Shown here piece after piece: positions 4,439 through 55,614 of a DNA stretch of 64,000 nucleotides; position 1 is the first letter of the stretch, and every line of letters starts with the position of its first letter. The position numbers were made by a program, and so were the translations under genes. The notes beneath the pieces are model-generated. The model made no database searches. It was not told the DNA's origin and saw nothing but the letters and a program-made list of their open reading frames with translations. The DNA is from Vibrio artabrorum (GTDB lineage: Bacteria; Pseudomonadota; Gammaproteobacteria; Enterobacterales; Vibrionaceae). The stretch is from NCBI RefSeq assembly GCF_024347295.1, contig NZ_AP025458.1:2790001-2854000 (forward strand), in the 5' to 3' direction.

Positions 4439-4478
4439 CTCACTCAATCAATCAATCACCAAGGACAAGAACACAAAC

Positions 4479-4513
4479 AAAAACGCCCGCTACTCAGTAG
4501 CGGGCGTTTTTGT
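4479..4513. terminator. Bidirectional terminator between rraA and zapB
   Basis: AAACGCCCGCTA pairs with TAGCGGGCGTTT, with an A-run on the left and a T-run on the right. The perfect 12-bp stem can end both the rightward rraA and leftward zapB transcripts. Confidence 0.9.
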
Positions 4514-4530
4514 TAAATCCGAAGAGCCAA

Positions 4531-39081: not shown

Positions 39082-40908
39082 ATGCCTGACAAATTTAATA
39101 TGCAGCACCCACCCTTCAATAGCCTATCCGACGTGGAACAGTTGAAGCTTCGTGCTTCATTAGACGTAGTGTATTACCGCTCTCAGGAAGTGATACTGGA
39201 AGCTGATAGGCCAAGCCGACACCTGCACATTTTAATCAAAGGGGCTGTTGAAGAGCGCGCGAGCAGTGACGGTGAGATTTACGCTCACTATGCCAATGAA
39301 GATATTTTTGATGTCCGCAGTCAGTTTGAACCTCACACTAAACACCAATATATCGCGCTCGAAGATACATTAAGTTATCTGCTGCCCACCGATATTTTTC
39401 TCGAGCTTTACCACGCTAACGGCCAATTCGCCGCCTACTTTGATAGCAACCTATCGACACGTAAAGCACTAATTGAAGCAGCCCAGCAACAGCAAAATCT
39501 AGCCGAGTTTATCTTGACCAAAGTGGATGACTCTATCTATCACCCACCACTGATACTTGAACCAAACCAACCTATCAACCAAGTCACTCAAACCCTTAAA
39601 GAACAAGGGTTGGACTCGGCTCTCATTCATTTAGAACATGATGATCCAAAAGCTTTTGGATCATCATGTTCCTTACCATATGGAATCGTCACTCGAACCA
39701 ATTTATTGCATGCTGTGATGCTCGATAATTTCCCACTGGATGCGCCCGTTGGTGAGATCGCAACGTTTCCGGTGATGCACGTGAACCAAGGCGATTTCCT
39801 GTTTAACGCCATGATTACCATGACCAGAAATCGAGTAAAAAGGTTGATGGTTTGTGATGGTAAAAATGCGGTCGGCATGGTGGATATGACACAGATCCTC
39901 AGTGCATTCTCCACCCACTCCCACGTTCTCACTTTACGTATTGCACGCGCCACCAGCGTTGAAGAATTGGCAATGGCCTCTAACAAACAGCGTCAACTGG
40001 TCGAAAGCTTACTCCGTAATGGGATTCGAACACGCTTTATCATGGCGCTGATTTCTGCGGTTAATGAGCAGATCATAGAGAAGGCTTTTGAGTTGATTAT
40101 CCCGCCAGCACTGCATAATCACTGCTGCCTCATCGTGTTAGGTTCCGAAGGTCGCGGCGAACAAATTCTCAAAACCGATCAAGACAACGCACTAATCATT
40201 CAAGATGGTTTGCAGTGGCATCAATGCCAAAGTGCGATGAACGATCTCACTCATACCCTTCAACAATTGGGTTACCCACTGTGCCCGGGCAATGTGATGG
40301 TCAACAATCCGAAGTGGGTACACTCAGAACAAGAGTGGAAACAGACCCTCACCCGTTGGGTAAAAAAAGCCACGCCAGACACCGTAATGGATATTGCGAT
40401 CATGGCAGATGCACACGCAGTGGCGGGTAATAGAGAGTTATTAAAACCAGTCAAACAGCACCTCAGTGATTTAATGCTCGGACAGGAATTGATTTTGGCG
40501 GAATTCTGCCGCCCGGCGCTGAACTTCTCGGTTCCCCTCACCCTATTTGGCAACGTCAAACAATCCAAGTCAGGGCTCGATATCAAACAAGGTGGTATTT
40601 TCCCTATCGTGCATGGTGTGAGAGCGCTTTGTCTGGAGCATGGTGTCACCGTAAACAATACCTTCAAACGTCTTGAACAGTTGGTCAGCCAAAAAGTACT
40701 CGAGCAAAGTACCGCGGATAATCTCAGTGAAGCGCTCAAGCAATTCTTTAAGTGGCGCTTAGCCCAAAGGCTTTCTCAGCAGCACAGCAGCAACAAGATT
40801 AACATCAAACTGATGGAGCGGGCAGACAGAGATCTGCTTCGTCATAGCCTGCATGTGGTGAAGAAATTCAAGCAATGGCTCGGCTACCACTATCAGATAC
40901 GGGATTAG
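39082..40908 (+). CDS. cNMP-binding/CBS/DUF294 nucleotidyltransferase-like protein
   Basis: About 608 residues. Order: cyclic-nucleotide-binding-like domain (about 15-125), two CBS domains (about 150-270), DUF294 nucleotidyltransferase-like domain with the GSEGRGEQ and TDQDNALI motifs (about 350-370), and a C-terminal DUF294 substrate-binding-type domain. Such proteins are thought to be signal-transduction enzymes; the reaction is unknown. Start uncertain: GTG 39073, ATG 39076 and ATG 39082 are in frame and none has a clear ribosome site. The exonuclease gene begins 11 nt after its stop, so they form an operon, found likewise upstream of acs in other vibrios. A perfect 38-bp palindrome lies in the first CBS domain. 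Confidence 0.85.
   Translation: MPDKFNMQHPPFNSLSDVEQLKLRASLDVVYYRSQEVILEADRPSRHLHILIKGAVEERASSDGEIYAHYANEDIFDVRSQFEPHTKHQYIALEDTLSYLLPTDIFLELYHANGQFAAYFDSNLSTRKALIEAAQQQQNLAEFILTKVDDSIYHPPLILEPNQPINQVTQTLKEQGLDSALIHLEHDDPKAFGSSCSLPYGIVTRTNLLHAVMLDNFPLDAPVGEIATFPVMHVNQGDFLFNAMITMTRNRVKRLMVCDGKNAVGMVDMTQILSAFSTHSHVLTLRIARATSVEELAMASNKQRQLVESLLRNGIRTRFIMALISAVNEQIIEKAFELIIPPALHNHCCLIVLGSEGRGEQILKTDQDNALIIQDGLQWHQCQSAMNDLTHTLQQLGYPLCPGNVMVNNPKWVHSEQEWKQTLTRWVKKATPDTVMDIAIMADAHAVAGNRELLKPVKQHLSDLMLGQELILAEFCRPALNFSVPLTLFGNVKQSKSGLDIKQGGIFPIVHGVRALCLEHGVTVNNTFKRLEQLVSQKVLEQSTADNLSEALKQFFKWRLAQRLSQQHSSNKINIKLMERADRDLLRHSLHVVKKFKQWLGYHYQIRD
39634..39671. repeat. Perfect 38-bp palindrome inside the DUF294 gene
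   Basis: Each arm is 19 nt, with no spacer: left arm GAACATGATGATCCAAAAG (39634-39652), right arm its exact complement (39653-39671). The centre is AAAAGCTTTT. It is in frame and encodes EHDDPKAFGSSC in the loop of the first CBS domain. Both strands read the same peptide through it. Confidence 0.95.
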
Positions 40909-55559: not shown

Positions 55560-55585
55560 TCTCAATGTGATACCGTCAAATGCAA

Positions 55586-55614
55586 CAAAGGCTCCCTAGG
55601 GAGCCTTTGTTTTT
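55586..55614. terminator. Convergent terminator
   Basis: CAAAGGCTCC pairs with GGAGCCTTTG across CTAG and is followed by TTTTT on the plus strand. Lies between the CNNM-type gene and the DUF416 gene. Confidence 0.85.

What the first reader, a model, noticed from the sequence alone, without database searches (positions are those of the whole stretch)
39634..39671. Perfect 38-bp spacerless palindrome inside a coding sequence
The DUF294 gene contains a 19+19 palindrome with no mismatch and no spacer, in frame, encoding the loop between strands in the first CBS domain. Chance occurrence in one gene is very unlikely, and such sequences are prone to deletion. It may be a small palindromic insertion tolerated in a variable loop, a binding site, or an assembly fold-back artefact.
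Basis: partly seen in the sequence, partly recalled or inferred. Interest (0 to 1): 0.75.

Follow-up and report, generated by a model that had tools for sequence, protein, structure and literature searches.

The report
Repeated palindrome lodged in a gene
A perfect 38-letter DNA palindrome inside a Vibrio gene belongs to a scattered family of palindromic sites that seems to have taken over a protein loop, and its DNA letters are conserved even where the protein code would let them change.

Summary
The 38-bp spacerless palindrome at 39634-39671 is real (about 2.6e-7 expected by chance in 64 kb) and not an assembly artefact: 35 of 42 ingroup Vibrio species (31 Splendidus-clade, 4 Fortis-like) carry it or a derivative with a few changes in the same codons. 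It is not a net insertion: most more distant orthologues examined have a loop of the same length. Nor is it a one-off. Its 26-bp core, with up to 3 mismatches, also lies between genes in 18 other Vibrio genomes (near rdgB, pncB, dusA, a porin). So it is best read as a copy of a dispersed, roughly 46-bp palindromic repeat that overwrote the CBS1 beta2-beta3 loop. Its evolution is inverted: over 12 palindrome codons, third positions changed 3 times (49 expected from matched codons) but first and second positions 40 times (gene median 9). The freeze stops within one or two codons of the palindrome, and lineages that lost the palindrome show an ordinary third-position count. I read this as sequence-level constraint on the DNA, most likely a site read by a dyad-binding protein. 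That step is inferred; membership of the dispersed family is well supported. Outward growth of the arms fits template switching.

The parts
39634..39671 (.). Perfect spacerless palindrome (19+19), codons 185-197 of the DUF294 gene
39630..39675 (.). 46-bp stretch that aligns end to end with the dispersed Vibrio palindromic repeat (61.7 bits; the model was built partly from this sequence)
   Evidence: alignment A2, model R1, window scan
39643..39646 (.). Left GATC; its A (39644) pairs across the dyad with 39661 and is one of the two most changeable pairs
   Evidence: sequence; change counts
39659..39662 (.). Right GATC, mirror of the left one
   Evidence: sequence; change counts
39647..39658 (.). 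Centre CAAAAGCTTTTG; its outermost pair 39647/39658 is the most changeable pair (8 + 4 changes in 35 taxa), the inner ten positions changed 3 times in all
39082..40908 (+). Host gene: cNMP-binding / CBS / DUF294 nucleotidyltransferase-like protein, 608 aa from the start shared by orthologues (the ORF list starts at an upstream GTG, 39073)

Best explanation
The palindrome belongs to a low-copy dispersed palindromic repeat of vibrios (about 46 bp, centre AAAAGCTTTT, two flanking GATCs). A copy overwrote the CBS1 beta2-beta3 loop of the DUF294 gene in an ancestor of the Splendidus and Fortis-like species, probably also of the 99-70-13A1 line, without changing the frame; the in-frame TAG that the family's usual right end would give is absent here. 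Since then the DNA letters themselves have been held under constraint, so the loop peptide is largely dictated by the repeat. Shown: sequence identity with the family, presence in 35 species, no net length change, frozen third positions with sharp edges, ordinary third-position counts in the lineages that lost it. Inferred: the direction and route of copying (repeat into gene), that the constraint is recognition by a symmetric DNA-binding protein, and that later outward lengthening of the arms came from template switching.
For: Same 26-bp core at other loci: 5 of the 32 genomes with an exact match to the degenerate core, and 20 of the 55 (of 227) with up to 3 mismatches, have it outside this gene; 18 of those 20 look like family members; reversed-pattern controls 0. 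Gene copies match an intergenic-only consensus at 28-33 of 38 positions, null mean about 9. Third positions: 3 changes against 49.3 expected from matched codons, none of 100,000 draws as low; L009 and L016 differ at 288 of 608 third positions but 0 of these 12. Edges: codons 184, 185 and 198 changed 9, 5 and 13 times at third positions. The seven palindrome-less taxa add 11 third-position changes here, gene median 10. In seven pncB leaders the palindrome is as conserved as the coding start (0.895 and 0.887) while the median window is 0.55. First/second-position rates of the two arms agree beyond 99.3% of pseudo-sites.
Against: No binding protein or regulon was identified; neighbouring genes share no obvious function. 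Only 3 of 43 changes are at third positions, fewer than a codon-blind constraint would give (P=7e-5), so tolerated pairs must happen to sit on first and second positions, or proteins are also under selection there. The agreement between variable positions in gene and intergenic copies is partly built in by the search pattern: rho 0.55 falls to 0.44 without the four free positions and to 0.37 (P=0.09) on the 22 fixed ones. The all-position arm correlation is reached by 15% of pseudo-sites. The 24 flanking codons are also somewhat conserved (7 of 24 third positions differ). First and second positions also changed fast in the palindrome-less taxa (19, gene median 2). No target duplication, mobiliser or empty site with precise ends was found. 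Part of the left arm (DDP codons, GATGATCC) is also normal coding sequence in distant orthologues, and L088 matches the consensus at 17 of 38.
Confidence: 0.6

Rival explanations
1. Local origin by template switching: an imperfect inverted repeat in the loop codons was corrected to a perfect palindrome during replication, and arm-to-arm correction maintains it. The likeness to intergenic palindromes would be secondary.
For: Perfect length runs 30 (L016), 34 (L058), 38-40 bp in different species, with both arms differing at the outer ends. Across gene and intergenic copies, cells changed on both sides number 47 against 27.2 in shuffles, 0 of 500 as high, and slid structures do worse. Template switching is known to homogenise arms, also in coding DNA (PMC8604942, abstract seen; PMC8794818, abstract and opening seen).
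Against: The same 26-bp core at unrelated loci of other genomes. Correction keeps the arms alike but not the letters, so it predicts paired third-position changes; only 3 third-position changes occur in 35 taxa. The count of pairs changed on both sides is not above shuffles (8 against 7.0, 162 of 500).
Confidence: 0.15
2. The palindrome DNA mutates or is repaired differently (for example one arm serves as a repair template for the other), so third positions look frozen without selection.
For: The freeze coincides with the palindrome and is gone in lineages that lost it.
Against: First and second positions inside it change faster than anywhere else in the gene (40, second highest window, the highest overlapping it), so mutations do arise and persist.
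Confidence: 0.12
3. It acts as an RNA hairpin in the mRNA.
For: Strong predicted hairpin, z -6.2, none of 200 shuffles as stable.
Against: The commonest tolerated changes in the gene copies (U.U, A.A, C.A and A.G combinations) break pairs; no Rfam match at the gathering score in three intergenic copy loci.
Confidence: 0.08
4. Chance, assembly artefact, or ordinary protein-level selection on the loop.
For: Loop residues change fastest in the gene, as diversifying selection would give.
Against: Chance 2.6e-7; present in 35 genomes; protein selection does not freeze synonymous sites with an edge at the palindrome.
Confidence: 0.03

Closest known systems
Rickettsia palindromic elements (RPE) in protein-coding genes
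   Same: A dispersed palindromic repeat found inside a gene and translated as a peptide that the protein tolerates
   Different: Here the loop was overwritten without net length change, only one genic locus is convincing, and the palindrome letters are kept or extended, whereas RPEs are reported to lose repeat identity with time (PMC6649704, passage seen)
REP elements (repetitive extragenic palindromes)
   Same: Short palindromes mostly between genes, sometimes within genes (PMC3733652, passages seen)
   Different: 1 to 4 detectable copies per genome here, not high copy; no shared GTAG or CGTC tag at the ends of the alignment; no transposase link looked for
MITE-like intragenic repeats of enterobacteria (RU-1 to RU-3)
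   Same: Small repeats present between genes and translated within some genes (PMC2759123, abstract and outline seen)
   Different: Those are 103-168 bp; this one is about 46 bp and wholly palindromic
Coding palindromes in Nematomorpha mitochondria
   Same: Perfect inverted repeats kept inside functional genes, with arms that stay matched
   Different: Those are numerous, up to 284 bp, and described as scattered through mitochondrial genes, not as copies of an intergenic family (PMC6649704, abstract and passages seen)
Template-switch (quasipalindrome-correction) mutations
   Same: Longer perfect arms in some species; symmetric changes of the outer arms
   Different: The core letters are shared with other loci, which local switching does not explain

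Membership tests
Dispersed Vibrio palindromic repeat (defined here) | Core matching the family at other loci of other genomes | tested here: met
   reversed-pattern controls 0
Dispersed Vibrio palindromic repeat (defined here) | More than one copy in the genome concerned | tested here: met
   One decayed second copy in the own genome, 34.4 bits, E 4.3e-5, between genes; no second copy at 3 or fewer mismatches
REP elements | High copy number | tested here: not met
   One place per genome at up to 3 mismatches; 1 to 4 places per genome in 21 of 25 genomes for the half unit
REP elements | GTAG or CGTC tag at one end | tested here: not met
   No shared tag at the ends of 20 aligned copies
REP elements | Linked RAYT transposase | not tested
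   No search made
Rickettsia palindromic elements | In-frame net insertion into the gene | tested here: not met
   Same loop length in most more distant orthologues
Rickettsia palindromic elements | Translated copy of a dispersed palindrome within an intact gene | tested here: met
MITE | Terminal repeats with target duplication at filled against empty sites | tested here: inconclusive
   DUF4426-rdgB spacer filled in 6 and empty in 24 of 30 chosen genomes, but flanks too diverged to define ends
Template-switch palindrome | Local origin, letters not shared with other loci | tested here: not met
Template-switch palindrome | Changes that make the arms match better | tested here: inconclusive
   Cells changed on both sides exceed shuffles, number of such pairs does not
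Protein-binding dyad site | Bound by a specific protein | not testable with these tools
   Needs pull-down, EMSA or DAP-seq
Known structured RNA | Match to a curated Rfam family | tested here: not met
   0 matches at gathering score in L177, L173 and L189; the DUF294 locus itself was not scanned

The most novel reading that the evidence does not exclude
A previously undescribed Vibrio DNA site family whose sequence is under stronger selection than the protein it sits in, so that a DNA signal dictates the amino acids of a CBS-domain loop: an inverted codon clock in which synonymous positions are frozen while amino acids drift at the site's tolerated positions.
Probability: 0.45. Interest if true: 0.8.

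Novelty: new variant of a known kind. Interest (0 to 1): 0.62.

Why it matters
It gives a natural case, with 42 ingroup species of which 7 have lost the palindrome, in which a DNA-level signal rather than the protein seems to set the evolution of a coding stretch. It warns that a dN/dS scan would call this loop positively selected although the low synonymous rate has another cause. And it points to a Vibrio palindromic site family that can be tested directly for a binding protein.

Tried and rejected
Assembly artefact: rejected, palindrome or derivative in 35 genomes. Net insertion: rejected, same loop length in most more distant orthologues. Purely local template switching: set aside because the same core lies elsewhere. 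RNA hairpin as sole reason: folds well but common changes break pairs; Rfam gave nothing for three intergenic copy loci. Inversion of a mismatched palindrome as source of mirror-image states (note): not tested further. Mobile carriers: no exact match of a slightly wider degenerate pattern in viral contigs and no blastn match of the pncB copy in plasmids; the phage collection was not searched. Literature; six literal core strings occur in no paper of the held open-licence library, which says nothing about other journals.

Full report
Observation. The palindrome is exactly where stated and has an expectation of 2.6e-7 in this window. The next longest spacerless palindromes are 28 bp (between ORFs, followed by T's) and 26 bp (not examined). 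In 122 deduplicated orthologous sequences the longest spacerless palindrome elsewhere in the gene is 16 bp, in 1 of 122. The gene encodes a 608-aa protein with cNMP-binding, CBS, DUF294 and DUF294_C matches; the palindrome codes for a coil between two strands in a moderate-confidence model.

Orthologues. A protein search of 61 genomes and a DNA search of 227 genus genomes gave the set; a scan of named genomes shows Splendidus-clade species among the nearest. After dropping duplicates 122 sequences remained (which printed only those at 73% identity or more). The tree uses the 47 with at least 76% identity, palindrome codons removed; one row, L151, is 44% filled. Forty-two are ingroup: 38 that I call the Splendidus clade and 4 that I call Fortis-like, from the names of identical loci. 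Thirty-five of the 42 keep the palindrome or a derivative; seven have lost it (five of the V. tasmaniensis group, and L054 and L015), six of the seven with a one-codon deletion. Perfect lengths are 30 bp (L016), 34 (L058) and 38-40 in several; many other species have a mismatch nearer the centre. The loop has the same length in most more distant orthologues.

Inverted codon pattern. By minimum-change counts on the tree, the 12 palindrome codons (186-197) have the fewest third-position changes of 597 windows (14; median 65) and the most first-plus-second-position changes (59; median 11) in 42 taxa. In the 35 palindrome-bearing taxa the figures are 3 (median 55; 49.3 expected from matched codons, none of 100,000 draws as low) and 40 (median 9; second highest, the highest window overlaps it). 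Third positions of codons 184, 185 and 198 changed 9, 5 and 13 times, those of codons 186-197 3 times in all. L009 and L016 differ at 288 of 608 third positions, at 7 of the 24 flanking codons, and at 0 of these 12; four other pairs tried also gave 0 of 12. The seven palindrome-less taxa add 11 third-position changes to this window (gene median 10, 5-95% range 4-18), and 19 first-plus-second-position changes (median 2): third positions are ordinary there, while amino acids still change fast. Changes in the 35 taxa concentrate in mirror pairs, above all 39647/39658 (8 and 4) and 39644/39661 (6 and 3). Residue D188 is invariant in 24 diverse orthologues, yet its codon is one of the most changeable here. 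Against a plain codon-blind constraint, only 3 of 43 changes are at third positions (P=7e-5); I take this to mean that the tolerated pairs lie on first and second positions.

A dispersed family. A degenerate core matched exactly in 32 of 227 genomes, in 5 of them outside this gene. With up to 3 mismatches 55 of 227 genomes match, each at one place: 35 in this gene, 20 elsewhere, reversed-pattern control 0 throughout. Of the 20, eight lie just after a DUF4426 gene before rdgB, seven between dapD and pncB, two between zur and dusA, and one before a porin with further copies in tandem; two (L178 inside ndk, L186) are probably chance. These gene names are my reading of the translations, recalled and not from a database call. 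A covariance model built from 20 copies (4 from this gene, 16 of the 18 intergenic ones) found a second, decayed copy in the own genome between convergent genes (E 4.3e-5), seen in 7 Splendidus-clade genomes that I looked at. An outer-arm pattern matched 32 of 227 genomes, 21 of them with that kind of site and some with unrelated sequence; its control matched in 5 genomes. A half-unit search matched in 21 of 25 chosen genomes, controls 0; some of those places are inside genes and may be chance. In 24 genomes of other genera the model's best E was 0.07. The DUF4426-rdgB spacer is filled in 6 and empty in 24 of 30 chosen genomes. In seven pncB leaders the palindrome is as conserved as the coding start while most of the leader is not.

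When it arrived. Against a consensus from the 16 intergenic copies, the palindrome-bearing genes without gaps match at 28-33 of 38 positions; the L081 and L154 loops match at 24 and 23, above every other window of their genes (17 and 18). L083, L082 and L158 match at 11-13, like their other windows; L088 reaches 17 and L099 15, somewhat high. The model scored L154 at E 0.017 and L081 at 0.16, so this is suggestive. Arrival probably predates the split of the L081/L154 line, with decay there. In this frame the family's usual right end would give TAG, which the gene does not have.

Mechanism. Best supported: a dispersed palindromic site overwrote the loop and its letters are still constrained, most likely because a symmetric DNA-binding protein reads them. 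Positions that vary among intergenic copies also vary in the gene (rho 0.55, 38 positions), but four of them were left free in the search pattern; without them rho is 0.44 (34 positions, P=0.009), and 0.37 on the 22 fixed positions (P=0.09). First/second-position rates of the two arms agree more than in 99.3% of 453 pseudo-sites, while the all-position correlation is reached by 15% of 570. On 45 sequences (29 of the 35 gene copies and 16 intergenic), cells changed on both sides exceed shuffles (47 against 27.2) and slid controls, but the number of pairs so changed does not (8 against 7.0). That fits selection for dyad symmetry or template-switch correction.

Known ground. REP, RPE, MITE and template-switch palindromes are the nearest kinds. 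Papers seen: PMC6649704 (abstract, passages), PMC8604942 (abstract), PMC8794818 (abstract, opening), PMC3733652 (passages), PMC2759123 (abstract, outline), PMC2267715 (passages). Six literal core strings occur in no paper of the held library.

Noticed in passing
L189 (G013), about 1967-2056: Two adjacent palindromic copies, with further similar half units beside them, upstream of a porin-like gene; a tandem arrangement like that of operator sites.
   Followed up: partly
L151 / L160 (G189): The DUF294 orthologue has a frame break in this draft assembly, downstream of the palindrome.
   Followed up: no
L235, L236, L237, L241: A half unit of the repeat (up to 3 mismatches) lies in frame in a HAD-like gene and reads FGYDDPKA, close to the DUF294 loop peptide; chance or a second genic copy.
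   Followed up: no
L228, L229, L230, L231, L234, L239: Several diverged intergenic half units are followed after a similar distance by a GCTGC(A/T)CACT-like motif (AACTGCACAC in two), hinting at a larger repeat.
   Followed up: no
window 4476-4514 and 55584-55611: Two other strong inverted repeats, both outside the listed ORFs of 100 aa or more and followed by T's; they look like ordinary terminators.
   Followed up: partly
L074, L047, L049, L050, L053, L015, L054: Lineages that lost the palindrome show clustered changes in the loop, six of the seven with a one-codon deletion, suggesting a fragile or shuffling site.
   Followed up: partly
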